A DNA stretch of 64,000 nucleotides, taken from Lunularia cruciata. Lineage: Eukaryota; Streptophyta; Marchantiopsida; Lunulariales; Lunulariaceae. Made by a program: the position numbers and the translations under genes. The notes beneath the pieces are model-generated. The model ran no database searches and had not been told where the DNA came from. It was given only the letters and a program-made list of their open reading frames with translations. The stretch is taken from the NCBI GenBank assembly GCA_948567375.1, contig OX419755.1, forward strand, positions 84,834,218 through 84,898,217, read 5' to 3'. Each line of letters starts with the position of its first letter. The stretch's first letter is position 1. This document shows, piece after piece, positions 18,299 to 56,148 of this stretch.

Positions 18299-18300
<2 letters not shown>

Positions 18301-18387: not shown

Positions 18388-18393
<6 letters not shown>

Positions 18394-27194: not shown

Positions 27195-27195
27195 A

Positions 27196-27207
27196 TGGTA
27201 TCAGAGC
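27196..27207 (+). promoter_or_regulatory. Primer-binding site, initiator-Met tRNA
   Basis: tggtatcagagc, one base after the LTR end: the standard plant Met-tRNA primer complement. Confidence 0.9.
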
Positions 27208-32311: not shown

Positions 32312-32322
32312 AAGGAGGGAGG
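32308..32322 (+). promoter_or_regulatory. Polypurine tract of the chromodomain gypsy
   Basis: ttaaaaggagggagg lies directly before the 3' LTR and overlaps the polyprotein stop. Confidence 0.85.
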
Positions 32323-34260: not shown

Positions 34261-34289
34261 CATTTTCTAGATTCAGCCTAGTCATCCAA

Positions 34290-36060
34290 TTGATAGCTTT
34301 GTGGTGAGAGCTCAAGCCATTGCAATAGTAGCAAAGTCATATGATGTGCTAGTTGGTGGAGTAATGTTCTAGCCCATGGGTTTCAATATTGATTATTAGG
34401 AAGAGATAGCTTCCTATAGCCCAAGTTGGCATTTAGTTGGGGGATAGGTATGCCACCTACCAGTGTGCTTTACTAGTGGTTGCCTTGGCTCACTACAATC
34501 AAGGACCATGGCATTAGTTTCAACTTTTAGTGATTACATTACTTGGCCTGATGACTTATTAGAGGGGAAAATCCATGTGGAAGATATTCTAGTACTAAAG
34601 GAGATCACTTGGATTTGGAGTACAAGTGGGATTGTTCCATCCACCTTGGATGTTCCATTATGGAGTTATGGGGAGGAATTGTAGCAAAATGCGGATTTGT
34701 TGGTGCAATAAGGTTGGAGTGGAGCCTTTGTACCACCAAGAGACCAATATGAGGATTAGCCTTTGGAGTCTATTACCTTGTCATCTTTGGGTACCATACT
34801 TATTGCCTAATAATATTTAGCAAAAGGAGTATGCTTATTGGAGTTGTTTGGTAGGATTAGCACTAGACTAATTATGGCACTAAAGGCAAGTATATGGGTT
34901 TAGAAGTACTTATATATGGAGAGAGATGAGACTACTAGGTGAGTCTCTCTATAGACCATGCACGATTCTACCTACTTCATTGCAAGCGCCTTTGACAGCA
35001 CCCATAATGACCTTCTGGGCCCTTTCCTAAAGATTGCACGTAAATGTCAGGCCAAACTCTTGGCGGGACTGAGTCCAAATCCTTTGTAAGTCTTCTGGCA
35101 TTTTCTGAAAGTCCGGTAACATTTCAAAGATATTTTAAGCGTTGTTATTCATGCACCGGTCATTAAATCATTAACAATATTTTCCAACATGCGACTAGAA
35201 AAATAAGCAGCATGAGGTACACTTGGCCTATTGGTATCTTGAATTATTACCAATGTCAATAGTTAGGGGTTACCAAAAGACTCAATCGGAAGACATTTTC
35301 TAACTAAGGAAGCATGATCTAAAAAGACATGGTCCCATTCATTTGGTGATTTTGGATAGCCATGTTAGGGACATATCTGTGTTGGCTGAGGTTAGGCTAT
35401 AGATCTCTATTTTGGTGTGTTTTGAGAGATATTATGGATGCTTTGACATCTCTAAGTTCATCAGACCGTTTCTCTTGCCTACATTTTAGAGAACATTTCT
35501 TTGATGGGTGATTCTTGCACATGGGTGGTGGCAAGTACAAATCAAGTCTATTTTGGGATGGACTTGCTGTATTGTTGGATGCAACTAGAGCTGGATCACA
35601 AGCACATTGTCTTAGTCTTTGGTGAATGAACCTCTTAACGATAGAGAGGTTTAACCATGTGCCTATGATGGGATTCAATGGCTAGCTCACCTTATCATGG
35701 ATGATATTTTGGATGTTGAGTGCCAATATTAGATAGTGATAGTGGTTGATAGGTCATCTATGACAATGATGAACCTTGTTGGGCAACCCAAAGATGCTTT
35801 AACCACACTCATGAGTTTCTTAGGCTGACAAGCTCTTCAAGAAGGAGGTGTTGGACTTCTTTGGGAGTTATAGTTATAGCAATTGGTGGAGGCCAACACC
35901 AATGAGAGAGAGTGGGCAATGGGTTCTATATTGGTATAACCATTGTTTCAGTAGTCTTAAAAGCATCCAAGCATCAAGTGTTAGGTCAAGCTATGGACCT
36001 AAATTTTTTGACCTGGATTATGAGCCTTGGTTTGGTGGAGCAGCATAGGATGTGTTTGAT
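34290..36060 (+). pseudogene. Cytosine methyltransferase domain of copy A, broken
   Basis: Aligns with 48260-49800 of copy B. The upstream linker is kept (VVRAQAIAIVAKSYDVLVGG, STSGIVPSTLDVPLWSYGEE). Motif I reads LLELFGRISTRL at 34834-34870. The catalytic WPCQ has become stop-PC-stop (35356-35368), both explained by G-to-A or C-to-T changes. Motif VI (ENV) and motif VIII are damaged. The C-terminal GFYIGITIVSVVLKASKHQV and LGQAMDLNFLTWIMSLGL are still readable at 35910-36030. A 256-bp insert splits motifs I and IV. Not functional, but it shows that the domain belongs to the family. Confidence 0.8.
34953..35208. other. 256-bp insert within the copy A methyltransferase
   Basis: Absent from copy B, where gtctctctac runs straight into atcatgtggcacact. 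The insert contains an open stretch MHDSTYFIASAFDSTHNDLL and GPFLKIARKCQAKLL on the + strand. It has no terminal repeats that I can see and its origin is unknown. It could be a short captured fragment or a small non-autonomous element. Confidence 0.55.
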
Positions 36061-36419
36061 AGGTATCACCACTCAGACACTTGTGACCTCTATGTCTATT
36101 GAGATGATTCAAGCACATGTAAGGGAAGATAGACCAAGTGTGCATGGTATTCTTGGGTTATAGCCAATGGCTATTAGTGAGAATGATCTACTTGGAGTTC
36201 ATCAAGGTGAGCTTGGTCTACAAGGGTTATACACTTGGTCTACTAGGGTTATACCCTTGGTCTACTTGGGATACAGTTAGAGGATATGTGGAGCTTGCAA
36301 TCAAAGCAAAGGGAGTTTTTTGCTCTAAGGTTGTGGACTCTAGTGGTTAGGAGCATGAGATTATTGTTCCCAAGGGCCTGGTATAGTAGCCAATCAATGC
36401 ATCTTCCACTCCTACATTG

Positions 36420-37226
36420 TTTATAGAGGATACTTGGGAGCTTGATATTGGACCCAAGCTTACAAGAGGGAGAAAGACTGAGAGTTTGGAGGTTCTTGAG
36501 TAGCTATATAAGTTGTTTTGCCTTTAGTATGAAGGATTTGGGTACTCTAAAAGGACTTGGTATTTGGATTGAGTTAACTAGTAATACAGTAGTTTTTCAA
36601 CGTCCTTACAGATATAGCGATATGGAGAGCATTGATTTAGAGCCGAAGTAGAGACATTATTGAGGTTAGTTTGGTGGAGATTTTACATGGAAAGTATGCT
36701 TTAGTTGTAGTGATGCCGGCCAAGAAGGATATGCATGCATGAAAATACATTGATAGGTGGATATATGGAGATTACTATCCTATTTATTGATATATTAGGG
36801 CTGATTGGTATGCTATGCTTACACCAAAAGAGATCATTGATGCAAATAGGCATGCAAAGCTCTTCAATTTTTGGATCTCTCTACAAAATATCATTAATTG
36901 CCAATTAGGGAGGAGTACAAGTACAAGATAACATTTTGGGTAATTGATCCTCATGGCAACAATATACTATATCAATGGAGATTCTTGCCATTTAGGTTAA
37001 TGAACACTATTGCCAATTTTTAAAGGGTCATAAACATGATCCTAATAGGATTAGATTTTGCTTGGTGTTATATTGATGATATTTTGGTCTATAGCACTAT
37101 TGTTGAGGAGCATGAGAGACAATTGTTGGAGTTGTTTGAGAGATTAAGATCTTATGGACTCAAATTACATCTTGGGAAGTGTAGATTCTTCCACAAGCAA
37201 GTTGAGTATTTGGAACACATTATCTA
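36420..37226 (+). pseudogene. Reverse transcriptase of copy A, broken and cut at the X1 target
   Basis: Readable pieces: VWRFLSSYISCFAFSMKDLG, PYRYSDMES, LPIREEYKYKITF, LYQWRFLPFRLMNT and DFAWCYIDDILVYS (YIDD kept). The sequence stops at cacattATCTA (37222-37226), and the same ATCTA begins the C fragment at 54799, where the RNase H part follows. Confidence 0.85.
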
Positions 37227-40235: not shown

Positions 40236-40684
40236 TATCATGCCATTTGTAGTGCCGCATCTAGATGCTCGGACACTAGAGTTCCAGTGATAGTAGTTAG
40301 AGTTTTTCAGCAGTTTCTCATAGACTACTTTTCGATGGTCAGATTTTGTGTTCAGGGTACTAACTTCATGGTGGGGCCCACCATCACTTTGCACCGTTTG
40401 CACCGTTGAGTGTGCCATCAGTGGGACCGTTAGGGTTTCAGAGCTAGCTCAAGTCCAGGGTGTATAGTTTCAAAGTGAGCTCTAGAGAGCTCACTTCTTT
40501 GATGTTGAGCCTTCGAGTTCTTGGCTATGGTGGACAGAGGCCGCCGAGCGTCACCTAGATTCTCTATGCTTGAGTGGGTGTGGCTTGACTGTAATTAGTG
40601 CCTAGTTGTTGGTAGTTTATAGAGTGACAGATCAAGTACTGATCTGAGTTGAGTTGAGTTGAGAGTGGTAAGCAATCTGATTAC
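40236..40684 (+). repeat. 5' LTR of copy B, lacking its last ~105 bp
   Basis: Matches 53489-53924 closely, up to gtaagcaatctgatta. The following ~105-bp tail that both other full LTRs have (tgtggcactttagag...) is missing here. Confidence 0.8.
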
Positions 40685-40982
40685 ATCAGAGAAGTGAAGT
40701 CACGGGGAAATTGTGTGCATGAACTTTAAGTGTTGGTGGTATCTCCAAGCTCGTGGATTGTTGGTAGCTCAATTCAAGTTCAGTGTTTCCCTAGTGTGCA
40801 TAAGCTCGTTCAATTGATGCAGATTTGGCAGTTAGGCGGGCGGTGTGCGGAAGCGCTGGCCAAATTTTGAGCAAAGAAGGAGCAAATTTTGAGTAGTGGT
40901 TGTGATTTTGAGCTCAAGAGGTGAAGGCAAGACCAATTTGCTACGAGTTGGGCTCAGAAAGTCAAATTGAAGGTGGAGTTGG
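40685..40982. other. Leader of copy B, non-coding
   Basis: About 300 bp between the shortened LTR and a solo LTR. No ORF or known motif is seen. It does not align with the leader of copy A at this position. Confidence 0.4.
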
Positions 40983-41717
40983 TGTAATACCAAGGGTTAG
41001 CCATATGATCTAGATGTGAAATTCAGTTTGGTAACATCTAGAATGATGTTATACATGATGGTCAAAATAGATCAGATAGAAGTATCACCAAAGAACGTAC
41101 TTCTACTAATAGGGCAGAAATCAAAATAGACTTGAGAACCTTAGAACCAATAGCTAGACATATGATTTAAAGGTGAGAATTGGTTTGGTAACATCTAGAA
41201 GGATGTTACACATGATGGAATAAACAGATCAGAAAGAGGTATCACCAAAAGGGTACTTCTACTAATAGAGTAGGAACTGAAATATGCCTGAAATCTTTGA
41301 AGGCAATTTTGGAGGCCTAAACGAATGAATTAGGCCTCAAAAATATGAAGATCCCCCCCCAATGGAGGAGAGGCTGGCCTTCCCTTCCTCCTGCTTTGTC
41401 TCATTGAGAGCTTTCCAATGGTACCTTACGTGATTTTGAGATTCCTATAGGAAGATTCCCTAAAAGATTCTCTCCGGTCAAAGCTTGTTTGACCAACCAA
41501 ATAGGACCTAGACCAGACAGGTCACCCATCCAAGTAAGTAATCCAAGGGTGGAGCTTGCTGACATGTCACCTATCTGTGTCCCTAATCCTATGGTGGAGC
41601 TTCCTTGGAGGAGATCCTCTTTGTCTATATAATAAAAAGAAGGTGTTCCCTTGGGGCATCGAATGTTTGAGTGTGCAATCTGTGTTTTCTCTCTTTTCTT
41701 GTCCTTGGAGTATTATA
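40983..41717 (+). mobile_element. Solo LTR of the chromodomain-gypsy family, TSD GTTGG
   Basis: Starts TGTAATACCAAGGG and ends GGAGTATTATA, close to 26456-27194 including the internal duplication. Flanked by perfect GTTGG (40978-40982, 41718-41722). It arose by LTR-LTR recombination of an element that inserted in the leader of copy B. Confidence 0.92.
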
Positions 41718-42849
41718 GTTGGGAAGCTATTCTCATGAATTTGTGTTTTGGAAAAACTTGTGTTGTCAATTTGGCTCGAGTGGAAAGTTAGCGGGGGGAT
41801 TTGGCAAACAGTCAACTTTAGGGTTTACGTCAGATTTTGGTTGGGATTTACGTCAGATTTTGGCCAGATTTAGAGGAGTTTTGCTAGTTTGGAGGACTTT
41901 CGTAGATTTGGAGAAGTTTTGCCAATTTTGGAGGAGGTTCGAAGTGGCAACAAGAAAGGCCTCATTTGGCTGAATTTTAGCATTTAGAGGCATAAGGCTA
42001 TGGGCTATGAGAGGCTACGAAAGCCTAGAAGGGCCAACAAGCCAGCTTGCTGGTGTGAGGCTTAGAGTAGATCTTGGTCATTGGTTGGCAAAATCTGCCT
42101 TCCTTGCTAGATTGTGCGCAACAAGGTTTGACCCCTAGATTTCTTGTTCCTAGACGGGTGCCCTAGCCAACTGGTCCACCCTCACTTGTTGTCCTAGTGA
42201 CGGTGCCACTGTTATCTATACACATGTAGCTTTGGCTAGGAGAGGCAGTTTGATCCCATTCTTGGTGATCTAGGTAGCTTAGCACTTAGATACAGACTTC
42301 TCTTATGTCAAATGCCAAATGGTGGCAGAGTCAATCTCGTGTTGTGTTATGAGATGAAGGGTTTTTGTTTAGATTTCTTGTGATTGGATCCCCTCCATTC
42401 TCTGCTTCCTATTTATGCATCACGTTTGTGTAAGGTGCCCTGACTTTTGAGCATTGGTGCTTTGGTGTGCTCTCGGTGGTGAGGCTGGAGTGATGACCAG
42501 TCAGATTACCTTTGTTTCTCTCCGATGAGGTAGGAAGTGATGATCTACAGACCGTGAGAGTGCGTGTTATGATGGCAGGTTATAGGTTGCACTTTCCCCT
42601 AGTGTAGTTATCTTGGTTAGAGCTACATTAGTGGGTGGTGCTTAGTTGGTGTTGGCACGTGGTGGTGTTGGCACTTGGTGGGGTACTTGCGGTTATGACT
42701 TGCGATTACAGTTGGTGGTCTGGGTTTGCTGTTGTGGTTACTTTATCACGACAGAGTTCTTTGGAGATTCTTGAGGAGTTAGCCCTGCAGTACGCAATGG
42801 GTTTACTCAAAGTGGTGCTCAGTATTAGCCTATATCTCAGGTCCCAATG
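41718..42849. other. Leader of copy B with a primer-like site
   Basis: Non-coding leader. From about 42070 it aligns with 22850-24400 of copy A (caacaaggtttga, gtagctttggctag). A primer-like tggtggcagagtc lies at 42320-42332 (copy A has tggtgacaaagtc near 23937), but it is far from the LTR, so its role is uncertain. Confidence 0.45.
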
Positions 42850-43413
42850 AGGGAGGAGATTGACTCTGAGTTGGAGTTTGACACAGGAGCTGATTCAATT
42901 GAGAGTGCACTTGGTGTGTCCGCACCGTTGTTGTGGGACATGGACAAGATTTATGGGGCCTCCAAAGGCCCTAGATGTTACTATAGTGCGTACCATTGAG
43001 TTGGATGATTTCATCCAAGAGTTTGATAGTTGGTGTGATCTGCAGTAGATGCGGAACCCAACTTTGTTCACACCCTTCATGGCATGGAAGGGGTTTTTTT
43101 AGCATCTAGAGGGTTCGTCAATGGATGACTACCATGAGTTCAAGAGAGCTCATTTGGAGGAGATCAAGTTATGGAGATAGTATTGGTCTCCAAACTATGT
43201 CTCTATCACTTTAGGTTTAGTGGCCAGGAGTAGATTGGTTGTACTCACGAGTTCTAGCTCAAGTAATGTTGGTGGAGCTAGTGGAGGTGCACTAGCTAGA
43301 GATAGTGCTACTACAAGTGGAGGTACCGCTGCAGGAGGTGGTGTGGTACCGGGGTTTAACCCCATGGTGGAGTTCTTCTTGTGTTTGAGGTAGAACTACC
43401 AGGGAGTGCGGAC
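42850..43413 (+). pseudogene. gag of copy B, first part, broken
   Basis: Reads IELDDFIQEFDSWCDLQ, then FTPFMAWKG, DYHEFKRAHLEEIKLWR, WSPNYVSITLG and a Ser/Gly-rich stretch to FNPMVEFFLC, interrupted by stops and frame changes. Similar in placement to a gypsy capsid N-terminal region, though not assignable to a named Gag family by eye. Cut by the solo LTR at 43414. Confidence 0.65.
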
Positions 43414-44103
43414 TGTAACACCCATTTGTGCATGTGTGTGGTATTGTGATATTTAGCTTGGTATTACAAGTACTTAAGAGATATTATTTATAGAGATAAA
43501 GGATGGTTCTATATTAGTCATGGTTAGCTAAAGTTAGTCATAGCTAAGATAGAAGGGACTTTACTTTAGAGGAAGTAGAAAAGATGAGCACCACTATTTT
43601 GGATTTTAGTGTGTTGACTTGGTATTATTCCTAGGTGTTTGGCTTTGAGGAAAGAGTTGAGAACTCTTGGGTCCGCAAGCCTTTTTGTTTTGGATTCTTC
43701 TTTAGTCCAAGGATAGCCCATGTGAAGGAATCCTTGACTTAGTGGTTGGGTCAAGATAAGACCACATGCTTAGGGGAATATGCTCATGTGAATGGATATT
43801 CCTTTCTACTTTTTGACTGTACTTGACTTTTAGTCTAGTAACTTGAGTTACCACGGTAATTAGTAACTTTGGTACGTAACTATTTCACAAGTATATAAAC
43901 AAGGGGTGAGGAGGTACTCATCATCTTTTCATTTGCAACTATCTCTCTCTCATTGAGTTTTCTAGTGAGCAATGTCTTGAGTCTTGGAGTGTTAGCCTTG
44001 GAGGAGTATGATGGAGTTCGGGTTCCTTGCCTTCTTAGTCCATGGTGCGCTACCATAATAGCCATCAGAGGTTCATCCTGAGTGAGAGAAAGGCCGGCTC
44101 ACA
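43414..44103 (+). mobile_element. Solo LTR of a fourth family, TSD GGAC
   Basis: 690 bp, TGTAACACCCATTTG...GCCGGCTCACA, flanked by GGAC (43410-43413, 44104-44107). Copy A has the uninterrupted site near 25016. A TATA-like gtatataaacaagg lies near 43892. Family unknown. Confidence 0.85.
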
Positions 44104-45560
44104 GGACTGACAAGCTAAGGAGCTTGCAAGAGTTCCAGTGGAAGGCTGGAGAGAGCCTACGTGAGGCATACACTTGCATGAGGCGGCTGATCAGTTTCAC
44201 TCAAGGAGTTACTGAGGCCTAGGCAGTCCAGTTTTGGTATGGGATACTGGACAGGGAGTTGCGACGTAAATTTTGTGATGCTACGTTGTTATAGACTACT
44301 TCGCCTACTTTGGCAGTGGTCTTTGGTTTGGCTGAGCATATTGAGCTCAACATGGTGGAGGAGAGAGTGGTGACATTTGGATTTGGTAGGGAGACCTCAT
44401 CCACGGCTGTGACTTCTTCTAGAGTGTTGTAGAGTGCACCGCGCCCAGTTGGTTTTCAAGGACAAGGTGGACAGCGCAGATCCTATAGAGCAAGTGGAGG
44501 GCCTAGTGGAGTTAGACCCTTATCCTCATTTTTGGGTTAGCATCAGCCAGTGAGTGGTGGTGTTGCTTGTTGGACTTGTAGTGGACCCTCACCATCGGAG
44601 AGAGTGTACTCAGGGCAGTGGACCTGATACTTTGGGTGCATCACAGCCAGCACAGAGGCAGTGTGAGCATTGCCACAGATTTGGTCACACTAGTGACCGG
44701 CGTTTTGACCTACACTCAGAGTTACGGAGTTGTAGGGCTGCTATGGCTAGTAGTAGAGGAGCTCCAATTCATGGAGGATGAGGTGGTAGAGGTGGTGGTA
44801 GAGGATCTACACCTAGTAGGGGTGCAGTACCTACCCTTACTTCTGACACAGCTATGGCTACTCAAATTGAGCAGTTGGAGCAGAGATTGGCTAGTATGGC
44901 TATTGCTCAGAGGAGATCAGATTTGGGTGTTGAGGCTTCCACCTCATATGCTAGTGATAGAGATGTTGTGGACTTCATGTGTGGAGCAGCACAGGTGGAT
45001 CCATCTATAGCAGTGACTAGGAGTGTAGTACGTGCTCCAAAGCCTAGAGAAGCATCAGTGGAGTTGGACCCACAAAGAGGAGAGGTTGGGAGACAGGTTA
45101 GACTTCCCCAGTCTTCCATGCTATCTAGGCATTGCAGACAACATCCATGGTTCCTAGACGTCCCAATGTAGGTGTGGTAGGTGGTGATGGAGTACATGAT
45201 GGACTACCTGCTAGTCAGCCACTTGCTACTACACAAACTGAGTCTAGCATGATGTTGGGGGCGGCTCAGCTGATTATGCGGCATCCTTTGTTTTCAGCCA
45301 GCGACATGTTTACATTGGGAGTTGACCCAGCCCCAGTGTTCCAATTGGCTGCCACGTTGTGTGAGAGTAGGGATGGTGCAGTTCCTACTACTAGAGCAGA
45401 GGTGGTTGGTAGTGGAGCTGACTTGGTTGAGGAGCATGGGATCCGTTCAGCAACCAATGGTTTATGGCAAGGAGTAACGACTAGATTGGAGGAGTTGCCA
45501 GCTAGACGGGCCTTTGAGAGAGCGCGGTTTACACCTGGTGTTGTCCTATTGGACAACTAG
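44104..45560 (+). pseudogene. gag of copy B, second part with two zinc knuckles
   Basis: In one frame or another: LRSLQEFQWKAGESLREAYT, then TFGFGRETSSTAVTSS; first knuckle CWTC-GGPHHRREC (near 44570); second knuckle CEHCHRFGHTSDR at about 44665, whose last Cys is Arg here but Cys in copy A. Then a Gly/Arg-rich patch (GGRGGGRGSTPSRG), MATQIEQLEQRLASMAIAQR, which looks like a short coiled coil, and a longer open part (45132-45560) ending FTPGVVLLDN. Nucleocapsid function is inferred from the paired knuckles. Confidence 0.7.
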
Positions 45561-45599
45561 AGGGGGATTTTTTGTTTGGTGGGACCTTCAAGGAAAGTC

Positions 45600-45757
45600 T
45601 ATACACCATAGAGGGTCTTGTTAGACTCTAGTGCGCATCCCCTTATGTTGGGGAAGGCTGAAGTTGTCGGTTTGGAGTTACGGAAGACCGATGTGGAGAG
45701 GTGTCCATTTAGATCTAGACATCTCTAGGTGGTAGTTTGACATAGTACATCACACAT
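45600..45757 (+). pseudogene. Retropepsin-like protease start of copy B
   Basis: RVLLDSSAHPLMLGKAEVVG: the active-site DSGA is DSSA here (Asp codon 45624-45626; Gly to Ser by G-to-A). The protease is cut by insertion W at 45758 and resumes at 48239, where YDVLVGRAMLYPMG (near 48330) corresponds to the second half of a retropepsin (the YDVILG region). Confidence 0.65.
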
Positions 45758-48238
45758 TGTCGCGGAGATCGTATGGTCTTGAGATTGCGCTGGGCACCTG
45801 GCTGCCTGCGCTTAGGCTTTTGGATTGTTTTGTCCTTCTTGTACCATCTATTATTAGTCTCGGCTCATTATTCTTGACCTCTTGTTTGGTATATTATCCT
45901 CGGCTTTAGTATGTTTTGGGTTTGGTGGGTTTTGCAGTTCTGGTCCAGACTGATATTCTAGAGAGAATGATCTGGTGGAGTTTTGTGGAGTTATCCACAA
46001 GTTATGCGACCGGACTCAATCTCAAGCAATTAGTTAAATGTGCTGACCCATCTACATAAGTTGGACTGAGTTTAAAAAAAAAGTAAAATAATAAAAACAT
46101 TGTTATTATTTTTCTCTACCGCTGTTTGCACATCAAGTACACACTCTCAATCACTAAAATCTCATTTCTATTTCAATTCCAAGTTTTGCAGTTTATAATC
46201 CTTTGAGCCATGACACACGGCTCCTAACCAAATAGTGACCAAACCAAGGCACACTGACCAGCCAAGCACATGAAGAAATAAAATGAATTGAGCAGGTCCT
46301 ATATCCTATTCCTTACAACTCGTCATCTCCTTGTTCCGCAGCATCTCCAAATTGTTGTTCTTTCCAAGTCTCCACTGTCCAGTAGGTCCTTCCTCGGGAT
46401 TCTCCTTCTCTTTGATATTCCGGTATGTTAGATCTTCCCAAACGCTCTGCACTACTCTTGCCATAGGATTCTACGCCTGGTAAAAGCTCTTGACAAATCT
46501 CGTATCGAATTTCTATGTCCATTCCTCGTATTATCCTGAGCCAAACATGACTTCTCTCTTCTTTTGTTCCTGCCCGCCTTTCCTTTGGATGAACCTTCGA
46601 CTAGTAATAGATTCTTTGTCCAACCAACCTTTCAAGATTTTTCTATTTTTGCCAAGCCCTTAGGGACACCTCTGTCCTGCTAACCTTTCTGCTGATTTTT
46701 GTCCTTCCAAATACCTTCCCTATTTTTCCCCTGTGATTTCTTCTCTTCTTCTCCTTTTGAGACTAATTGTCCTCTTTGAAGATCCTTCTCTTGGTCTCTG
46801 TTTTTTATCCTGGCTAAACCCTCTCCATGCTTCACAGTCCTTTGTATTGCCAATAGGAAGTTCTTCTCTTGAGCTTCTCACTCAACGCTGCTCTGTCAGT
46901 TTGTCAGCCAGATTCCCTTCCCCTAAACCCTGATCCTTCCTTTGTCATTGACCCTTACTGCCTTTTGCCAAATTCAAACCATTCTGCATTCTTGTTTCTC
47001 TGAGGAAAATCAACACCGTTCTCTAAAATCCCACACTAGTCTATCAATCGTCAGCCAACTTATCTTCACGTGCATCCTACTTCTCCCTTCAAAATTCAAA
47101 CTTACTGCTTCTTTGAGAACTCAAAATCTATTCTCTTCTGCCTTCTGCCAACCTCAAATCTTACTGCCTTCCCTGAAAACCCCTTTGATCACTCCTATCT
47201 CTCCTTCATCTCCTTACTTTCATTTCCCTATCCTTCTTTTGATTTCTGGTCCTATCTTTCTTTTCTGCCAATTACCTCCTTTTGATTCTCAAAACAAAAT
47301 CCTATTCTCTCTTCCTGCAAGTTTTCAGAAAACCCCTGCCTTCTCTTGATTCTTTGCCTTTTCTTGCCTCCACAATCTTTCACTTCTTTCTGTATTTTCT
47401 GTAATTCTCCTCCTTTTTTTGACTCCACAATACTTCACTCCTTCCTGTCTCCATGATCCTTCACTCCATACTCTTTAAACCTTTTTTTTTATCCCCTTGT
47501 CATTCCAATTCCATTTTCCTTCCTGTCCTTCTTCTCTCGTCGATCCTTACTGCTCTCTGCAAAAATCCCGAAAACCTCCTCTCATTCTTCCTTTTCTCTG
47601 TCCACCTCCTATCCTCTGCAAACTCGAAACCCTCATTCTCCAATCACATAAAACAAAACTCTGCCATTCTTCCTTCACTTTGTCCCTAAAGGACCTTCCT
47701 GATTACTCCTTCATGATCATTTCAATTCCTTTCGTTTCACTTCCTTCCCGATTACTCCTTCATGATCATTTCAATTCCTTTTGTTTCACTTCCTTCCTGC
47801 CCACCTTCTGTCCTTTGCCAAGGCTCGAAATCCTCTCACCTTTACCATTCAATCCCCTTCCTTACTGTCCTTCTTCTCCCCGTCAATCCTTACAGCTCTC
47901 TGCCAAAATCCCGAAAGTCTCTTCTCATTCTTCCTTCACTCTCCCTAACGAGCCTTCCTAACTACCCCTTCACAATCATTCCAAGTCCTTTTCCTTACTG
48001 TCCTTCTTCTCCCCGTCGATCCTTACTGCTCTCTGCCAAAATCCGGAAAACCTCCTCTCATCCTTTTCCAAAACTGTCAACCCGTCTCACTTTCAATAAT
48101 TCTCCTACGGCAAGGTAGCCAAACCCACACCCGAGATATATTATCCTAAATCCATGTTCCTTACAACAACTAAAAGAGAGAAGAAAATTTATCACACCAA
48201 AGCCTCAAATGTACACATAGGCTATTTTCCCGACGACA
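45758..48238 (-). mobile_element. W, 2.5-kb insertion of unknown class in the protease
   Basis: Absent from copy A, where the two sides are joined. Its ends are TGTCGCGGAG and CCCGACGACA (TG...CA with a short inverted repeat), and the flanks ACAT and ACGT could be a 4-bp TSD with one transition. The + strand is extremely C/T-rich over about 46550-48110. A minus-strand ORF of 69 codons (46313-46522) ends EQQFGDAAEQGDDEL, but no known domain is seen. Strand is a guess from the purine-rich minus strand. Confidence 0.5.
47515..48070 (+). repeat. Pyrimidine-rich tandem repeats inside W
   Basis: A perfect-looking 49-bp duplication (47701 and 47750, cgattactccttcatgatca-type units) and units of about 133 bp with tgtccttcttctc and gatccttactgctctctgc near 47520, 47860 and 47993. 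No coding meaning is supported on either strand. Confidence 0.8.
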
Positions 48239-48242
48239 ACGT

Positions 48243-49822
48243 GGGGAGCTTGTTGTCCATGTTCAGCCTGGTCATCCGACTGATAGCTCAATGGTGAGAG
48301 CTCAGGCTATTGCGATGATAGCTGAGTCATATGATGTGCTAGTTGGAAGAGCAATGTTATACCCCATGGGTTTTAGCATTGACTATTGGGAGGAGACAGC
48401 CTCTTATAGACTTGGTTGGCAGTCTGGTGAGGGACGGGTATGTCGCCTACCAGTATGCTTCAATAGTGGCAGTCTTGGCTCACTACAGTCCGGGACCATG
48501 GCAGCATCAATTTTAGCTTTCAGTGGTGCAGTTACTTGGCCTGGTGACTTGTTGGAGGGGAACACCCATGCAGAGGATACTCCAGTACCAAAGGAGATCA
48601 CTCGCCTTTGGAGTACGAGTGGGATTGTTCCATCCACCTTGGATGTTCCATTGTGGAGTTTAGAGGAGGCATTATAGCAACATGCAGATCAGTTGGTGCA
48701 GCATGCTTGGAGTGGAGCCTTCGTACCATCAAGAGATGAGTGTGAGGATGAGCCTCCAAAGGCAATTTCTTTGACACCTCTAGATACCACACTCATTGCT
48801 TGGCAATATCCAGTAGAGAGGATATGCCTATTGGAGTTGTTTGGTGGGATCAGCACCGGACTAGCTGCGGTGCTATAGGCGGGTATACAAGTACATATGT
48901 ACTTGTATGTAGAGATGAGATTGTTAAGCGAGTCTCTCTACATCATGTGGCACACTTAGCCTATTGGTATCCGGAGTTATTACCGATGTCAACAGTCAGA
49001 GGTTACCAGAAGGCCTTACCAAGAGATATTTCCTTACGGGGGGCGCATGACCTAGAGAGACATGGGCCTATTCACTTGGTGATTTCTAGATGGCCATGTC
49101 AAGGACATACACGTGCTGGTAGAGAATTGGGTCTTCAAAATCCTCATTCTGGTGTGTTTTGGGAGATGTTACAAATACTACAACATCTCCAGGTTCATCA
49201 GTCTGTTTCTCCAACTTACCTTTTGGAGAACGTTCCTTTGATGGGTGATTCTCGCACTAGAGTGGTGGCGAGTACACATCAGGTCCATTCTTGGATGGGA
49301 CCTGCTATATTGTTAGATGCAGCCAGAGTGGGATCACGGGCTCATCATCTTAGTCTTTGGTGGACAAACCTCTTACCCAGAGAGGTTCTACAGCGTGCTT
49401 ATGATGGGATTCAGCGACTTGACCACATTCTTGTTGATGATATCTTGGATGTTGGGCGTTAATCTCAAACAGTGGTAGTGGCTGATAGGTCACCTATGGC
49501 AGTGGTGAACCTAGTTGGACAGCCTAGAGCTGCATTTCCCACACTCATGAGTTTCCCAGGCTCTCATGCTTTTCGAGAGGGAGGACCTGGACTTGTTTGG
49601 GACTCACACTTACAGTAGTTGGTGGAGTCCAATGCTGATGAGAGAGAGCGGGTGATGGGTTTTCACACCGGTATTATCGCTGTTCCAGTAGTGTCAGAGG
49701 CATCTAGGCGTCAGGTGTTAGGTCAAGCTATGGACTTGAACTGTTTGATGTGGATTGTGAGCCTTGGCTTGGCAGAGCAGCGTAGGATGCGCTTGATAGG
49801 CACACCACTCGGACACGTGTGA
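48243..49822 (+). pseudogene. Cytosine-C5 DNA methyltransferase domain of copy B, with one frameshift and three stops
   Basis: A linker continuing the protease (SYDVLVGRAMLYPMGFSIDY, then STSGIVPSTLDVPLW) leads into motif I LLELFGGISTGL (48828-48863), motif IV WPCQGHTRAG with catalytic Cys at 49097-49099, motif VI LLENVPLMG (ENV 49226-49234), motif VIII SRAHHLSLWWTNL (Arg 49337-49339), and motifs IX/X ERVMGFHTG (49646-49672) plus SRRQVLGQAMDLN (near 49710). The order I-IV-VI-VIII-IX-X is the usual one and not the permuted order of plant DRM enzymes; motifs VIII-X look most like the DNMT3 side of the family. Stops at 48675, 48876 and 49460, 49613 and a 2-base deletion near 48903 relative to copy A inactivate this copy. 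Expected reaction: 5-methylation of cytosine using S-adenosylmethionine. Confidence 0.87.
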
Positions 49823-50100
49823 GCCCTGTGCCTATCGAGACGATTCAGGCACATGTTGGGGGTGATGGACCGAGTGGACATGGTATTCTTGGGACACATC
49901 CAATAGCTACTAGGGAGAGTGGTCTACTTGGAGTCCATCCAGGTGAGCGTGAGCTACTTGGATTACACCCTTGGTCTACATGGGATGCAGCTAGAGGATG
50001 TGTGGAGCTTGCAGCCAGAGTGGAGGGAGTTTTTCACACAGAGGTTGGGACCTCTAGTGGTCAGGAGCATGACACTATTGCTCCCAAGGGCCCAATGTAG
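49823..50100 (+). pseudogene. Linker between methyltransferase and reverse transcriptase
   Basis: Open frame starting near 49819: IETIQAHVGGDGPSGHGILG, then LLGVHPGERELLGLHP, WSTWDAARGCVELAARVEGV, ending at a TAG before the reverse transcriptase. It is shared with copy A (36075-36390). No fold is recognised. The WSTWD-to-FHTEV part may be the start of the pol connection. Confidence 0.6.
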
Positions 50101-51087
50101 CAGTCAGTCAATACGTCTTCCACTCCTACTACAGTTACAGAGGATACTTGGGAGCCAAATCTTGGACCCAAGCTTATTGGAGAGGAAAGACGGAGGGTTT
50201 GGAGGTTCTTGAGGAGTCACACGAGTTGTTTTGTCTTCATTATGAAGGATTTGGGTGCTCTGAAGGGACCTGGTATACAAAATTGGGCTAACTAGTGACA
50301 CACCAGTTTTCCGACATCCTTATCGATATAGTGAGATGGAGAGGACATTGATTCAGAGCCAGAGTAGTGACCTTTTTGAGGTTGGTTTGGTGGAGATTTC
50401 ACATGGAGAGTATGCATCAACAACAATGATGCCAGCCAAGAAGGATATGCATGGCAACTATACATATAGGCGGATGTGTGGAGATTACCGTCCTATCAAC
50501 CAACAGACCAAGGCTGATTGGTATGCCATGCCTACACCGGAGGAGATTTTTGATGCGATTGGGCATGCAAAGGTCTTCAATACTTTGGATCTTCAAGCGG
50601 GATATCATCAGTTGCCGATCAGAGAGAAGGATAAGTCCAAGACAGCATTTTAGGCTATTGATCCTCACGGCAAGGATGTGTTATATCAGTGGAAGTTCTT
50701 ACCATTTGGATTAAAGAATGCTCTTGCTGAGCTCCAGAGGGTCATGGATAGGATCCTAGCTGGATTGGATTTTGCTTGGTGCTATATTGATGACATTTTG
50801 GTTTATAGTACTACTATGGAGGAGCATGAGAGACAATTGTTGGAGGTGTTTGAGAGGTTGAGATCTCATGGACTCAAATTACATCCTGGGAAGTGTAGGT
50901 TCTTCCACGAGCAGGTTGAGTATTTGGGTCACACTATCTACCCCGGAGGACTTGGTGTTCATCAAACCAAGGTGGATGTTATTGCACGTATTCCTCGGCC
51001 TAGGGATGTGAGCAGAGTACAAGCATTCCTTGGGTTGGCAAACTTCTACGCCGCTATGTTAGAGGATTTAGTGCCATTGCCAAGGCC
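50101..51087 (+). pseudogene. Reverse transcriptase of copy B
   Basis: Ty3/gypsy-type reverse transcriptase: VWRFLRSHTSCFVFIMKDLG, FRHPYRYSEMERTL, MCGDYRPINQQTKADWYAMP, FNTLDLQAGYHQLPI, YQWKFLPFGLKNALAEL, CYIDDILVYS with YIDD at 50783-50794, HPGKCRFFHEQVEYLGHTIY and VQAFLGLANFY. One frame (50336-51091) holds most of it with a single TAG at 50651, where Trp is usual. The first part (50101-50335) is in another frame. Confidence 0.9.
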
Positions 51088-51780
51088 TTGACAAAGCTGA
51101 CCAAAGTTACACAAGAGTGGTGTTGGGGAGATGAGCAAGAGAGAGATTTTGTAGAGCTCAAGGAGAGGTTGACATCTGCTCCTATTTTGAGGAGAATCAG
51201 GGGACGACCATTTCAGGTTCACACTGATTGGAGTATGTTGGGGCTTGGAGCGGTGCTCACCCAGCATGATGATGAGGAGAAGGAGTTTGTGGTGGCCTAT
51301 GCTAGTCGCTCTAACAATTCAGAGGAGGCAAAGTATAGTTCATATGAGGGAGAGTGCTTGGCAGCAGTTTGGGCAGTAGCACATTTATGATGTTACCTAT
51401 TTGGTAACCCCTTCACTCTCATCACTGATCACCAGCCGCTGAAGTGGTTGATGGAGTCCAACAAGCTTTTAGGGAAGCTTGCATGATGGGCTCTGATTTT
51501 ACAAGAGTATGATTTCATGGTTATTCATAGACCTGGTATGGTGAACCGTGATGCAGATGGGTTGAGTAGAAACCCATGCCCCAGCCAGCAGGATCAGACC
51601 AGAGCACGTTGGCATGGTGAGACAGATGAGGAGATGGTGCCAGGTTGGCATGCATCGGCCTTTCTGTGTATATTTGCAAAGGCTTTGGTGGTATCTCTAT
51701 CAGCGCATACAGGAGGAGTTATTGAGGTCACAGATCCAGAGAGTGAAGATATTGGTACAATTCAGTGAGACATTCATGAT
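51088..51780 (+). pseudogene. RNase H and tether of copy B
   Basis: WGDEQERDFVELKERLTSAP, FQVHTDWSMLGLGAVLTQ, YSSYEGECLAAVWAVAHL, then after a TGA LITDHQPLKWLMESNK and VIHRPGMVNRDADGLSRNP, all typical of the gypsy RNase H and tether. The frame shifts once near 51065 relative to the reverse transcriptase. Asp and Glu of the active site are present. Confidence 0.9.
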
Positions 51781-51929
51781 GATGTCTTAGTGATGGACTA
51801 TCTTTGCACTGGTGTTGTGGGTGGCATAGTTGGGGCCAAGGAGAGAGACCATGTTCTTCAGCGAGCCAGACGGTTCAGATTGGAGGGTCGACACCTTTTG
51901 CATGTATGGGAGGATGGAAGAGTGTGAGT

Positions 51930-52990
51930 AGTACCACTTCCATCTTAGAAACCACAGTTGGTCCATCATGCTCATGAGGAGCTAGGACATTTTGGAGTAA
52001 AGCGTACCTATAGCTTACTCCAAAGTCATTATTGGTGGCACGGTATGCAGACCAAGGTATAGCAATTTGTTGCCAAATGTGTGATTTGTGACCAAGTTAG
52101 AGCATCATTCAATGCTCCTACGCCATAGTTACACCCATTACCTATCAAGGGATTGGGTTACCATTGGAGTTTGGACTTTGCTAAACCCTTTACCGCTAAC
52201 TGTGAGACATCATCGGTATGTTTTGGTGATGGTGGAGCACTTCTCCAAGTGGATTGAGTTGGTGGCACTTCCTGACAAGTCTAGTGAAGGGACAGCTTAC
52301 TCATTCTTGGATCAAGTTCTTAGTCATTTTGGTGCACCAGTTGAGGTTTTGACTGATCAGGGTACAGAGTTCTTGGGGGAGTTTCAGGTCTTGTGTGACA
52401 AGGCTTTGATTGATCATCATACTACCTCCTGAGATCACCTTGAGGTAGATGGCTTAGCACAAAGAGTGGTTCAGACGGTGAAGAGAGGATTGCAAAAGTA
52501 TGGTTTGCAGAGAGGCCACTTGGGAGATTGGGATCTCCAATTACCTTGGTTGGCCATGAGCTATTGGTTCAGCCGGCAAGCCTCCTTAGTATCCTTCTCT
52601 CCATACTTTCTACTCTATGGACAAGATCCAGATTTACCTGCAGCCATTTGTCGAGATGCTACTGTAGTTTTGGACTTGGATGATCTCGATATATGGATGA
52701 GTGCATGTTCTCAGCGGGCAGAGATCTTTTGGAGAGTGATGATGATGGCCTTTGAGAACTTGGCGATTGCTCAGCAGAGAGATACTTTACGTTATGCTAC
52801 CATTCAAGGAGGAGGTTATAGACCCTCAATCCGTTGATTTCATCCAGGCGACTATGTATATCTATAGCAAACAACACCGATGACACTTGATGTTACTACA
52901 AGCCGCACTATCTTGAGAGTGCATGAGGTTTTGCCATCTTGAGTCCTTGTGTTAGAAGGACGTGATGGTGTTGTTTAGAAGGATCATGTG
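51930..52990 (+). pseudogene. Integrase of copy B
   Basis: HHCC finger (VHHAHEELGHFG ... CVICD, 51960-52095), catalytic core WSLDFAKP (first Asp, near 52170), MVEHFSKWIELVALPDKSSE, VLTDQGTEFLGEF (second Asp, near 52353). The third acidic residue, expected in the AERVVQ position, reads AQRVVQ (near 52458), so the core is damaged. The C-terminal part has PWLAMSYWFSRQASLVSFSP and YFLLYGQDPDLP. Several frame changes. In copy C only 61128-61475 of this domain is left. Confidence 0.85.
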
Positions 52991-53050
52991 CACAATTGTG
53001 CACCATGCCACCTTCCAAACATTGATGGTACTATGGACCCAAGCTTGGCA

Positions 53051-53212
53051 CTTGTATGTGCAGGCTTGAGGTGTATGTTATGTGGCTCTTCTGGTGGAGC
53101 TGCTACTATGTTAGTGTGTGATAGCTTTTTGAGAGGATAGCATATGGCATGTATGACTCCTCCCCTCACGGTGGTTCCTCAAGGACAGTGGTTATGTCCT
53201 AAATGTACTTGA
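53051..53212 (+). pseudogene. PHD finger at the C-terminus of copy B pol
   Basis: One frame reads LRCMLCGSSGG, LVCDSF, an in-frame TAG, HMACMTPPLTVVP, GQWLCPKCT and TGA (53210-53212). This is the C4HC3 spacing of a PHD finger. Two positions are damaged: the fourth Cys is Phe (TTT for TGT), and the conserved Trp before the His is TAG (TGG to TAG). PHD fingers bind histone H3 tails, so a role in choosing insertion sites, like the chromodomain of chromoviruses, is likely. It follows the integrase with NCAPCHLPN-type linker. Confidence 0.8.
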
Positions 53213-53369
53213 CCTATAGCTAGTTCATTCTTTAAATGGTATAGATTGCAGACAGGCGACTAACAATGAGGCTCCATAGCACCTGGCCTCCTGATCTTTG
53301 CCCATTAGAGGGTATACCATATACCTAGAGTAGATGGCTATCTGGAGTTAGAGGGACCTAACCGCCAGC

Positions 53370-53381
53370 TAGGGGGGTGAT
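53370..53381 (+). promoter_or_regulatory. Polypurine tract of copy B
   Basis: taggggggtgat sits 160 bp after the PHD stop and directly before an LTR-end sequence starting TGTGGCAC. Confidence 0.7.
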
Positions 53382-53486
53382 TGTGGCACTTTAGAGTCTA
53401 TGTATGACTTATATGTCAGTTGTGCTTCTATAGTGTATGATGTTGACAGCAATGTATGTTGTGTAGCGATGTATATACGCACAACA
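53382..53486 (+). repeat. Extra copy of the last 105 bp of the LTR
   Basis: TGTGGCACTTTAGAG...TACGCACAACA equals the terminal part of the LTR (53925-54029, 13720-13823). It is followed by GC and then a complete LTR. I infer a 3' LTR whose first ~440 bp were deleted through a TGATT microhomology, next to a second LTR. Confidence 0.8.
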
Positions 53487-53488
53487 GC

Positions 53489-54029
53489 TGTCACACCATT
53501 TGTAGTGCCGCATCTAGATGCTCGGACACTGGAGTTCCAATGATAGTAGTTAGAGTTATTTCAGCAGTTTCTCAAAGACTACTTTCCAATAGTCAGATTT
53601 TGTGTTCATGGTACTGACTTCATGGTGGGGCCCACTGTCACTTTGCACCATTTGCACCGTCAAGTGTGCCGTCAGTGGGACCATTAGGGTTTCAAAGCTA
53701 GCTTGAGTCCAAGGGGTATAGTTTTGGAGCTCACTTCTTTGATGTTGAGCCTTCGAGTTCTTGGCTATGGTGGACAGAGGCCTATGAGCGTCACCTGGAT
53801 TCTCTATGCTTGAGTGGGTATGGCTTGACTATAATCAGTGCCTAGTTGTTGGCAGTTTATAGAGTGATAGATCAAGTACTGATCTGAGTTGAGTTGAGTT
53901 GAGAGTGGTAAGCAATCTGATTATTGTGGCACTTTAGAGTCTTTGTATGACTTATGTGTGAGTTTTGCTTCTATATTGTATGATGTTGACAGCAATGTAT
54001 GTTGTGTAGCAATGTATACACGCACAACA
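53489..54029 (+). repeat. 3' LTR of copy B
   Basis: 541 bp, TGTCACACCATTTG...ACACGCACAACA, followed by the TSD CCTC. Aligns with the solo LTR 13274-13823 in full and with 40236-40684 apart from the tail. Confidence 0.9.
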
Positions 54030-54033
54030 CCTC

Positions 54034-54712: not shown

Positions 54713-54798
54713 CCTTTTCTTTGTAATTTGGCTTTTTTACTCACTTCTTCCTCAAAACATTAACAAAACATTAAAAAACAAAAAATGTGGGCACCACA

Positions 54799-55565
54799 AT
54801 CTACCTTGGTTGACTTGGTGTTTAGCATTCCAAGGCAAAAGCTATTGCATATATTCCTTGGCCTATGGATGTGAGTAGAGTGTAAGCTTTCCTTGGTTTG
54901 GTAAAATTTTATCACCAATATATTAGAGGATTTAGTGCCATTGCAAGGCATTGACAAAGTTGACCAAGCTTACACAATAGTGGATTTGGGGAGATGAATA
55001 GGAGAGAATTTTTATAAAGCTCAACAAGAAATTAATATTTACTACTATTCTCAAGAGATTGATCAAAGGACAACAATTCTAAGTTCATTTTGATTGGAAT
55101 ACATTGGACCTTGCTTACCTAATAAGATGGTGAGAGGAAGGAGTTTTTGGTAGCCTATGCTAGTTCCTCCAACAATTTAGAGAGGTGAAGTATAGTTCAT
55201 ATGAGGGAGAGTGCTTGGCAACAATGTGGGCATTAGCACATTTCCAATCTTATTTATTTGGTAACCCTTTCTTTCTCATCATTGATCATCAACCACTAAA
55301 ATGGTTGATGAAGTTTGACAAGCTTTCAAGGAACCTTGCACAATGGGCTCTGATTTTATAGGAGTATGTTTTCACAATTATTCATCAATCTAGAATGTTG
55401 AACTATGATGCAGATGGGTTGAGTAAAGACACATGTCCCAACCAATAGGATTTGACTAGAGCACATTGGCATGGTGAGACAAATGAGTAGATGGTGTGGA
55501 GTTGGCATGCATCTATATATATGAGGTTTTGATAGTATCTCTCTTAGCACATTAAGGAGGAGTTA
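54799..55565 (+). pseudogene. Fragment C of copy A: end of reverse transcriptase and RNase H, broken
   Basis: Starts at the right ATCTA and aligns with copy B 50930-51725: IPWPMDVSRV-type sequence, YSSYEGECLATMWALAHF, LIIDHQPLKWLMKFDKLS, HQSRMLNYDADGLSKD. Stops and frame changes are frequent. It is cut at 55565 by the old chromodomain gypsy. Confidence 0.8.
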
Positions 55566-56148
55566 TGTAATACCATTAGCTAGACAAATTATCTAGAGGT
55601 AGAAGTTGGCTTGATAATATTTTTAAGGATAAAATATATAATGATCTAAGTATATTAGATAGAGATGTCACTAAAAGAATACTTCTACTAATGAGGCAAA
55701 GGTCAAAACCACCCTAAAAACTTTAGAGCCAATTTTGGAGGCCTAAACAAAGAATTAGGCCTTGAGAGATAGAATCAGCCCCTCCCCTTCAAAAAAATAA
55801 GCATTGTCTTCTCCCATATTTATTGTCTCATTGGGATCTTTCCAATGGTACCTCATCCATGCTATTTTGAACTTCCTATATGAACATTCTCTAAAGCTTC
55901 CCTTTGGTAAAACTTGTTTGATCAACCACATAAAACAAGGATCAATATGTAACCAATCTATGTAGTTAATCTAAAATTGTAGCTTGTTAACATGTCACTA
56001 ATCCATGTATTTAATACAAGGATGTAGTTCCATTTGAGAGGATACTCTTTACTATAATAAAGACAAGGTGGTTCTTTGGGGCATCGGAATATTGAGAAAT
56101 GAAACCTTGTGTTTTTCTTGGGATTTCTCATGTCCTTGGAAAATTTCA
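55566..56148 (+). repeat. 5' LTR of the old chromodomain gypsy
   Basis: Begins TGTAATACCATTAGC and ends AAAATTTCA. It has only one unit of the ~162-bp internal repeat that is doubled in the younger LTRs, so it is 583 bp long. Confidence 0.85.

What the first reader, a model, noticed from the sequence alone, without database searches (positions are those of the whole stretch)
48243..49822. A cytosine-C5 DNA methyltransferase is built into the pol of a plant Ty3/gypsy element
Seen: between protease and reverse transcriptase lie LLELFGGISTGL (motif I), WPCQGHTRAG (IV), LLENVPLMG (VI), SRAHHLSLWWTNL (VIII), ERVMGFHTG (IX) and RRQVLGQAMDLN (X), in the canonical order. Known: this is the signature of C5 methyltransferases; plant DRM enzymes have the motifs permuted, so this is not a captured DRM. 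From memory, retrotransposon-borne methyltransferases were reported in a dinoflagellate and in Klebsormidium (de Mendoza and colleagues, 2018). Inferred: the element may methylate its own cDNA or copies, or adjust how the host silences it.
Basis: partly seen in the sequence, partly recalled or inferred. Interest (0 to 1): 0.95.

Follow-up and report, generated by a model that had tools for sequence, protein, structure and literature searches.

The report
Jumping gene carrying a DNA methyltransferase
This stretch is a decayed copy of a plant jumping gene that carries, inside its own coding region, an enzyme of the kind that plants and animals use to mark DNA for silencing, together with a domain of the kind that reads histones; a similar element was known in an alga, and here such elements turn up in many copies in the window's own genome and in liverworts and peat moss.

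Summary
Confirmed. Copy A (40236-54029) is a degenerate Ty3/gypsy element with a canonical-order (not DRM-permuted) DNMT3-type C5 methyltransferase between protease and reverse transcriptase. A second decayed copy with the same layout lies at 33.3-37.2 kb. Relatives (best E 2.8e-72) are named from Marchantia, Calypogeia, Riccia, Sphagnum and Closterium. In the window's own 566-Mb genome 111 of 111 scored matches are full length. Of 30 sampled methyltransferase matches there, 29 keep protease-DNMT-RT-PHD; the 30th is a host DRM-like gene.

New here: (1) a PHD finger after the integrase. (2) A UAG between DNMT and RT in 30 of 30 genome copies that show the site and in window copies A and B, mostly as UAG-CAR-YYA: the methyltransferase belongs to the Gag-protease frame, not to Pol proper. 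(3) Split end repeats (A...B-A-B) with 4-bp target duplications. (4) In relatives the domain sits at either of two places.

Closest known: KnitGypsy-Dnmt3 of Klebsormidium, whose sequence I could not compare. Best mechanism, inferred and untested: packaged with Gag, it methylates the element's new DNA while the PHD finger guides integration. New variant of a known kind.

The parts
40236..54029 (+). copy A: whole degenerate Ty3/gypsy element (with later insertions inside)
   Evidence: 4-bp duplication CCTC at 40232-40235 and 54030-54033; start and end match other copies
40236..40683 (+). terminal repeat A1 (5' end, not followed by B)
44358..45557 (+). Gag region with CCHC knuckle remnants
   Evidence: tblastn with Marchantia P0067 and Calypogeia P0083
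45540..45751 (+). protease, first part (active site reads DSS; DSG in relatives)
45752..48240 (.). later CT-rich insertion that splits the protease of copy A
   Evidence: copy B is contiguous here: 34249/34251 matches 45751/48241
48241..48674 (+). protease, last part, and linker (YDVLVG..PMGF.IDYW)
48816..49816 (+). DNMT3-type methyltransferase domain, motifs I to X, frame 3 then frame 2, with stops
50098..50106 (+). conserved UAG with context UAG-CAG-UCA between methyltransferase and RT
50264..51088 (+). reverse transcriptase
   Evidence: PF00078 E 2.6e-22 on 50654-51088; Ty3 RT E 6e-21
51004..51387 (+). RNase H
   Evidence: PF17919 E 3.2e-25
52085..52834 (+). integrase (DDE core, rve)
   Evidence: PF00665 E 5.9e-12 on 52085-52429
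53039..53209 (+). PHD finger after the integrase (TAG at 53138)
   Evidence: PF00628 E 3.2e-10, above cut-off; PHD chains in PDB
53371..53377 (+). polypurine-tract-like AGGGGGG before B1
   Evidence: like sequence in 21 loci, window included
53380..53487 (+). repeat B1
53490..53923 (+). repeat A2; the B1/A2 junction is AACAGCTGTC here (palindrome GACAGCTGTC in ten other loci)
53924..54029 (+). repeat B2 (3' end)
33257..37226 (+). copy B: Gag end, protease, methyltransferase (34700-34948 and 35202-36124), RT start; 77% identical to copy A
22981..25651 (+). copy B, upstream part, cut off by a nested element
   Evidence: pieces match 42103-44761 of copy A
13274..13823 (+). solitary A-B terminal repeat with duplication CATT
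54795..55566 (+). copy C fragment (RT/RNase H); another at 61130-61479 (integrase)

Best explanation
It is a decayed member of a large family of Ty3/gypsy retrotransposons that took up a DNMT3-type methyltransferase, probably from a plant DNMT3, and also carry a PHD finger. Shown: the layout Gag-CCHC-protease-DNMT, a conserved UAG, then RT-RNase H-integrase-PHD in the same frame (L011/L012); conserved catalytic motifs; relatives in liverworts, peat moss and a desmid. Inferred: the ribosome makes Gag-protease-DNMT each time and reads through the UAG only sometimes, so the methyltransferase is made at Gag level and is packed into the particle. There it methylates the element's newly made DNA before or during integration, while the PHD finger holds the integrase to histone H3 tails. 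New copies thus arrive already methylated in chromatin that the host tolerates, which spares the host and keeps the element.
For: Layout: 9 of 10 sampled full-size copies have Gag to PHD in order; the tenth (L021/L022) lacks Gag and the front of the protease in the stretch, where another gypsy element lies; 19 of 20 further stretches have protease-DNMT-RT-PHD (one of the 19 without a detected integrase core; the 20th was a host DRM-like gene). UAG: 29 of 30 distinct genome loci by the RT frame and the 30th (L046) by direct reading; CAR-YYA follows in 27 of the 29 and in L046, against 0 of 45 other in-frame TAGs (two copies counted twice in the 45). Catalytic motifs in 26 distinct copies: IV GWPCQG 26, VI LENVP 25 (LENVL 1), IX ERERAMGF 23, X LGQAMDLN 24. 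DNMT pN/pS 0.45, RT 0.41. Profile without any host gene: DNMT3A 5e-23, DRM 4e-9. Spread: 111 of 111 scored matches full length, 66 listing no stop by my hand count (best-scoring ones only). PHD: Pfam E 3.2e-10; no stop in it in 24 of 30 loci. Precedent: two Symbiodinium DIRS-type DNMT domains methylate CG in yeast (PMC5890265, section 10 read).
Against: No activity, expression or methylation data here. The Klebsormidium enzyme showed no activity in yeast (inconclusive, the authors say; section 10). Transversion polymorphism shows weaker constraint on DNMT (ratio 0.73) than on RT (0.54) or integrase (0.46); PHD 0.82 on few sites. Only 4 of 26 distinct sampled copies have a DNMT domain without a stop. 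Copies decay by C-to-T at CG and CHG, so they are methylated in the germ line, but the CAG/CTG-over-CCG bias looks like host chromomethylase and does not show self-methylation. Plant DNMT3 origin: the tree was rooted on DRM, and by plain profile score animal DNMT3 pieces (55-67 bits) do as well as or better than the shorter host DNMT3 pieces (55 and 22 bits). The PHD ligand is untested; readthrough is inferred from sequence alone, and window copy B and two other loci lack the full CAR-YYA context.
Confidence: 0.5

Rival explanations
1. The methyltransferase acts in the nucleus on integrated copies and neighbours, so that the family silences itself and limits its own damage.
For: Copies show strong C-to-T decay at CG (0.095) and CAG/CTG (0.065/0.071) against CHH (0.015), so they are methylated over generations. 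Encoded on the Gag side of the UAG.
Against: CHG decay with low CCG (0.023) points to a host chromomethylase; the host has DRM, DNMT3 and CMT-like genes of its own. Self-silencing gives the single copy no clear gain.
Confidence: 0.2
2. The domain has lost or never needed catalysis and serves as a DNA- or RNA-binding or partner-binding part (DNMT3L-like) of the particle.
For: Encoded with Gag; pN/pS only 0.45; relaxed transversion ratio 0.73.
Against: Motif IV Cys (26 of 26) and motif VI Glu (26 of 26) are kept in 26 distinct copies and nearly invariant across relatives.
Confidence: 0.17
3. The enzyme methylates element RNA or its tRNA primer rather than DNA.
For: The authors of PMC5890265 raise RNA methylation for the LINE type (section 11); DNMT2 is a distant match.
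Against: Profiles put it with DNMT3, DNMT2 far behind.
Confidence: 0.06
4. Chance arrangement: a methyltransferase pseudogene fell into one element.
For: The window copy is a pseudogene.
Against: Copy B, 29 sampled genome copies and relatives in several plants share the layout.
Confidence: 0.01

Closest known systems
KnitGypsy-Dnmt3 of Klebsormidium nitens (de Mendoza et al. 2018, PMC5890265)
   Same: Gypsy domains, unpermuted Dnmt3-type methyltransferase in the coding region, DIRS-like arrangement of the repeats (Fig. 4 legend), purifying selection reported, CHG and CHH methylation reported on its copies.
   Different: Here in a genome with plant DRM and DNMT3 genes and in liverworts and moss; a PHD finger (the word PHD does not occur in that paper's main text; figures not held); a conserved UAG that leaves the methyltransferase on the Gag side (that paper says Pol polyprotein ORF).
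SymbioDIRS-Dnmt3 and SymbioLINE-Dnmt of Symbiodinium (same paper)
   Same: Retrotransposons with a methyltransferase; two DIRS-type domains methylate CG in yeast.
   Different: Other element classes; DIRS uses a tyrosine recombinase, this element a DDE integrase.
Plant DNMT3 (host gene; exon-like stretches in L001, L004)
   Same: Canonical order as far as seen; motif IV PCQ; sister in a short tree rooted on DRM.
   Different: Host gene, apparently with introns (not seen whole); 29% identical over 129 residues.
Chromoviruses (Ty3/gypsy with an integrase chromodomain; recalled)
   Same: A chromatin-reading type of domain after the integrase.
   Different: PHD finger instead; no chromodomain match in the window pieces and 14 relatives scanned.
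Ginger1 DNA transposons (PMC2836005, passages)
   Same: Gypsy-type integrase; one listed family (Ginger1-9_HM) has a C-terminal PHD.
   Different: DNA transposon; no RT and no methyltransferase mentioned in the passages seen.

Membership tests
Ty3/gypsy (Metaviridae-like) retrotransposons | order protease-RT-RNase H-integrase with Ty3-like RT | tested here: met
Ty3/gypsy (Metaviridae-like) retrotransposons | full LTR at both ends | tested here: not met
   5' end has A only; 3' end B-A-B; a split-repeat relative rather than a standard LTR element
Ty3/gypsy (Metaviridae-like) retrotransposons | integrase-type target duplication of 4-6 bp | tested here: met
   4-bp duplication in 7 of 11 copies examined (window copy A and 6 pairs); none seen in 1 (L023/L024); 3 not determined
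DIRS/PAT retrotransposons | split direct repeats A...B-A-B | tested here: met
   B-A-B in the 12 three-prime ends that reach far enough
DIRS/PAT retrotransposons | tyrosine recombinase instead of DDE integrase | tested here: not met
   rve found; no tyrosine recombinase family listed for 8 window pieces or 14 relatives
KnitGypsy-Dnmt3 kind | gypsy domains plus unpermuted Dnmt3-type domain | tested here: met
KnitGypsy-Dnmt3 kind | DIRS-like repeat structure | tested here: met
   legend of Fig. 4 read, figure not seen
KnitGypsy-Dnmt3 kind | common descent of the methyltransferase with the Klebsormidium one | not testable with these tools
   no hit named Klebsormidium among those listed (120 of 648 listed)
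KnitGypsy-Dnmt3 kind | methyltransferase in the Pol ORF | tested here: not met
   a UAG separates it from RT in 30 of 30 genome loci that show the site
DNMT3 methyltransferases | motif order I-IV-VI-VIII-IX-X and best profile match to DNMT3 | tested here: met
DNMT3 methyltransferases | motif IV PCN as in animals | tested here: not met
   PCQ in 26 of 26 copies; host plant DNMT3 stretches also have PCQ
DNMT3 methyltransferases | CG methylation activity | not testable with these tools
   needs an assay
DRM methyltransferases | permuted order VI-VIII-IX-X-I-IV | tested here: not met
   canonical order; host DRM L002 is permuted
Chromoviruses | chromodomain after integrase | tested here: not met
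   PHD found instead in the window and in 5 of 14 relatives scanned; no chromodomain listed in any

The most novel reading that the evidence does not exclude
An ancient streptophyte retrotransposon lineage carries a writer (DNMT3) and a reader (PHD) of silencing chromatin in one polyprotein, makes the writer at Gag dose ahead of a leaky UAG, and installs silent chromatin on its own new copies; its split repeats and DDE integrase suggest that it integrates from a circular form cut at the palindromic B-A junction.
Probability: 0.3. Interest if true: 0.88.

Novelty: new variant of a known kind. Interest (0 to 1): 0.74.

Why it matters
Transposons are normally the victims of DNA methylation. A family that brings its own DNMT3-type enzyme and a histone-reader type of domain, and has spread in a plant genome and in liverworts and moss, makes the question 'why would a parasite methylate itself?' testable in Marchantia, a laboratory plant that carries relatives. 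It also offers a natural case of an enzyme encoded on the Gag side of a stop codon, and of split repeats used with a DDE integrase.

Tried and rejected
Rejected: chance or single chimera (copies A and B; 29 of 30 sampled matches); DRM capture; DIRS element (rve, no tyrosine recombinase listed). A TAG near the protease-DNMT linker looked conserved at first, but lies at neighbouring, different codons in few copies: decay, not signal; the UAG between DNMT and RT is the conserved one. Clustering of 115 hits along chromosomes was not beyond chance (130 of 1000 random sets reach it at 50 kb, 145 at 100 kb, 338 at 250 kb). A structure model from alignment A2 was useless (mean pLDDT 41); no fold search was made. 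The viral-contig scan found no relative (35 pattern matches, none confirmed). A first idea that the standard LTR is B-A with TG..CA ends failed: B1 mostly begins CGATTGTGG and A2/B2 show no such junction. Codon-position test between copies A and B is weak support (p 0.061 protease-linker, 0.011 DNMT, 0.47 RT part 1, 0.007 RT part 2). Searches counted three copies twice (L006-L008 lie inside L009, L011, L013); one search repeats the counts without them. Profile A3 held one animal DNMT3 (P0190); A4 does not. The tree was rooted on DRM, so it does not itself test DRM.

Papers: PMC5890265 abstract, sections 9, 10, 11, 15 and passages; PMC2836005, PMC8616336, PMC9985172, PMC10952607 passages only; all others search listing only. 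No report of such elements in land plants was found in the searches (open-licence PMC only; of the 39 papers I saw 10 listed). Nothing was searched on stop readthrough, whose context UAG-CAR-YYA is recalled.

Full report
What was checked. The six motifs are in the window, in canonical order, at 48828-49741. The copy is a pseudogene: one frame change between motifs I and IV, stops, and a damaged motif VIII. Pfam alone is borderline on the broken piece (E 2.8e-4, 20.9 bits, cut-off 22), but the same piece finds 26 of 290 candidate proteins at E <= 1e-3, best 2.8e-72, and a profile of relatives finds 648 of 8000 scored (120 listed). Of six relatives scanned, five pass the Pfam cut-off; the sixth, Riccia P0025, has an N-terminal part that looks frame-shifted, but joins motifs VIII-X to the start of RT.

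The element. Copy A runs from 40236 to 54029 and is flanked by the 4-bp duplication CCTC. The RT is nearest to Ty3 RT among solved structures. A second copy, B, lies at 33257-37226 (upstream part at 22981-25651), 77% identical, with the methyltransferase again between protease and RT. Fragments of a third (C) and a solitary terminal repeat are also present.

Kind of methyltransferase. A profile of 36 relatives, no host gene among them, matches DNMT3A at 5e-23, DRM at 4e-9 and HaeIII methylase at 2e-7. With the 40-row profile, which held one animal DNMT3, no chain named DNMT1 or CMT appears at E <= 10. On 132 columns of motifs I-IV, rooted on host DRM, the family is sister to two DNMT3 stretches of the window's own genome (bootstrap/SH-aLRT 95/89), animal DNMT3 outside. 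Against this, a profile of the family scores animal DNMT3 pieces at 55-67 bits, the shorter host DNMT3 pieces at 55 and 22, host DRM at 42 and 37, a CMT-like piece at 6. The host stretches also have PCQ in motif IV. A plant DNMT3 origin is thus favoured, not proved; the branch is long (1.13).

Spread. Named relatives: Marchantia polymorpha and M. paleacea, Riccia sorocarpa, Calypogeia fissa, three Sphagnum species, and the desmid Closterium sp. NIES-54 (lineages of Calypogeia and Closterium). The window lies in a 566-Mb unnamed assembly that also holds DRM, DNMT3 and CMT-like stretches. There, 111 of 111 scored matches to P0002 span at least residues 3-366 of 368 at 72-74% identity; the first look had 13360 candidates, which is not a copy count. 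By my hand count 66 of the 111 list no stop; 12 list an open frame of 1428 codons, 8 of these without a stop. In L015 1428 codons from the frame's start end exactly at the UAG described below. These are the best-scoring matches, so the share of intact ones is biased upward: in my sample only 4 of 26 distinct domains lack a stop. Window copy A falls in a set of 29 rows that holds the named Marchantia, Calypogeia and Sphagnum rows and unnamed ones (SH-aLRT 99).

Layout in the host genome. 9 of 10 full-size copies that I sampled have Gag-CCHC-protease-DNMT-RT-RNase H-integrase-PHD on one strand; the tenth (L021/L022) lacks Gag and the front of the protease in the stretch, where another gypsy element lies. 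Of 20 further stretches, 19 show protease-DNMT-RT-PHD in order (one, L046, without a detected integrase core); the other, L029, was a host DRM-like gene. All were chosen as methyltransferase matches, so copies that lost the domain would not be seen.

The stop codon. By the RT reading frame, 29 of 30 distinct genome loci have one in-frame UAG between methyltransferase and RT at the same codon; the 30th, L046, whose RT match is in another frame, has it on direct reading. 27 of the 29 and L046 have UAG-CAR-YYA; two have CAG-CTT and CAG-CAA. Window copy A has UAG-CAG-UCA at 50098; copy B has UAG-UAG-CCA. Of 45 other in-frame TAGs in the protease-to-DNMT part (two copies counted twice), none is followed by CAR-YYA. 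Of 28 relatives' proteins looked at, 26 show motif X and end 78-163 residues after it; whether by a stop or by the end of a contig I could not see. UAG-CAR-YYA is the tobamovirus-type leaky stop (recalled, not searched). So the methyltransferase is encoded with Gag and protease. This is the clearest difference from 'Pol polyprotein ORF', said of Klebsormidium.

The ends. Repeat A (about 436-448 bp) stands alone at the 5' end (10 cases in 9 loci); B-A stands at the 3' ends covered, and full B-A-B in the 12 that reach far enough. Elements begin TGT and end ACA; a 4-bp duplication is visible in 7 of 11 copies examined, not seen in one, undetermined in three. The inner B-A junction is the palindrome GACAGCTGTC in ten loci and a variant in others, with two bases (GC) between ACA and TGT that the integrated ends lack. 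The legend of Fig. 4 in PMC5890265 says of KnitGypsy-Dnmt3: repeats as in DIRS, domains as in Gypsy. Since this element has a DDE integrase, integration from a joined or circular form is a guess, no more.

Two positions. Among relatives, Pfam coordinates put the methyltransferase before RT in P0132, P0163, P0166, P0171, P0180, P0182 and between RNase H and integrase in P0161, P0165, P0169, P0170; four of the 14 scanned do not tell. P0176, P0177 and P0184 look like the second type by motif position. In the methyltransferase tree all second-type rows lie among 12 rows, and the first-type rows present lie among 74, many of which do not show RT (SH-aLRT 85 each); P0188, with the domain before RT, lies outside both on a long branch. 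The RT tree groups six second-type rows (100/99). One capture with a later move, or two captures from kin, both fit; only one element without the domain was used as outgroup.

Selection and decay. In 26 distinct copies motif IV is GWPCQG in 26, VI LENVP in 25, IX ERERAMGF in 23, X LGQAMDLN in 24. Pooled pN/pS is 0.45 for DNMT (26 copies), 0.41 RT-RNase H (23), 0.55 integrase (27), 0.56 PHD (29). Transversion polymorphisms give 0.73, 0.54, 0.46, 0.82 (DNMT with three copies twice), so constraint within this genome is moderate and partly masked by decay after insertion. Stops from protease to DNMT in 17 distinct copies: 40 TAG, 9 TGA, 0 TAA (one TAA occurs among the 111). C/T differences by context: CG 0.095, CAG 0.065, CTG 0.071, CCG 0.023, CHH 0.015. 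This is the mark of long-term CG and CWG methylation of the copies; the CWG bias suits a host chromomethylase (recalled) and does not by itself show self-methylation. A-repeat pairs of six copies with matching duplications are 97.3-98.2% identical, those of window copy A about 92%: copy A is an old insertion.

Mechanism. Shown: what is encoded, in which order, with which conserved stop, and that the catalytic residues are kept. Inferred: leaky UAG, Gag-level dosage, packaging, methylation of the new DNA, PHD-guided integration. I give identity and layout about 0.97, the DNA-methylation-of-own-copies mechanism about 0.4, and the whole statement 0.5.

Limits. Host unnamed; Klebsormidium sequence not available; the one structure job accepted gave no usable model; the literature search covers open-licence papers only.

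Noticed in passing
window 26452-33055: Nested element with 737-bp repeats 98.9% identical, inserted into copy B; a related repeat sits at 40982-41711 inside copy A (94%).
   Followed up: no
window 45752-48240: 2.5-kb CT-rich insertion with internal repeats inside the protease of copy A; origin unknown.
   Followed up: no
L015/L016 and L019/L020: Two sampled copies are inserted in other copies of the same family, one inside motif X of a methyltransferase, one just before B1, with 4-bp duplications.
   Followed up: partly
window 37227-38066 and 61476-62314: An 840-bp shared sequence begins exactly where copies B and C break off; probably another repeat family.
   Followed up: no
window 3214-7541 and 17538-20129: Family of repeats of up to about 800 bp in many diverged copies.
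   Followed up: no
P0069: A protein of this family is named as from a Candidatus Obscuribacterales genome bin; probably contamination of that bin by a eukaryotic element.
   Followed up: no
P0165: In this relative the PHD finger is followed by a Tudor-like domain (PF21743, E 6e-8).
   Followed up: no
L001, L004: The host genome has DNMT3-like stretches of its own with PCQ in motif IV.
   Followed up: partly
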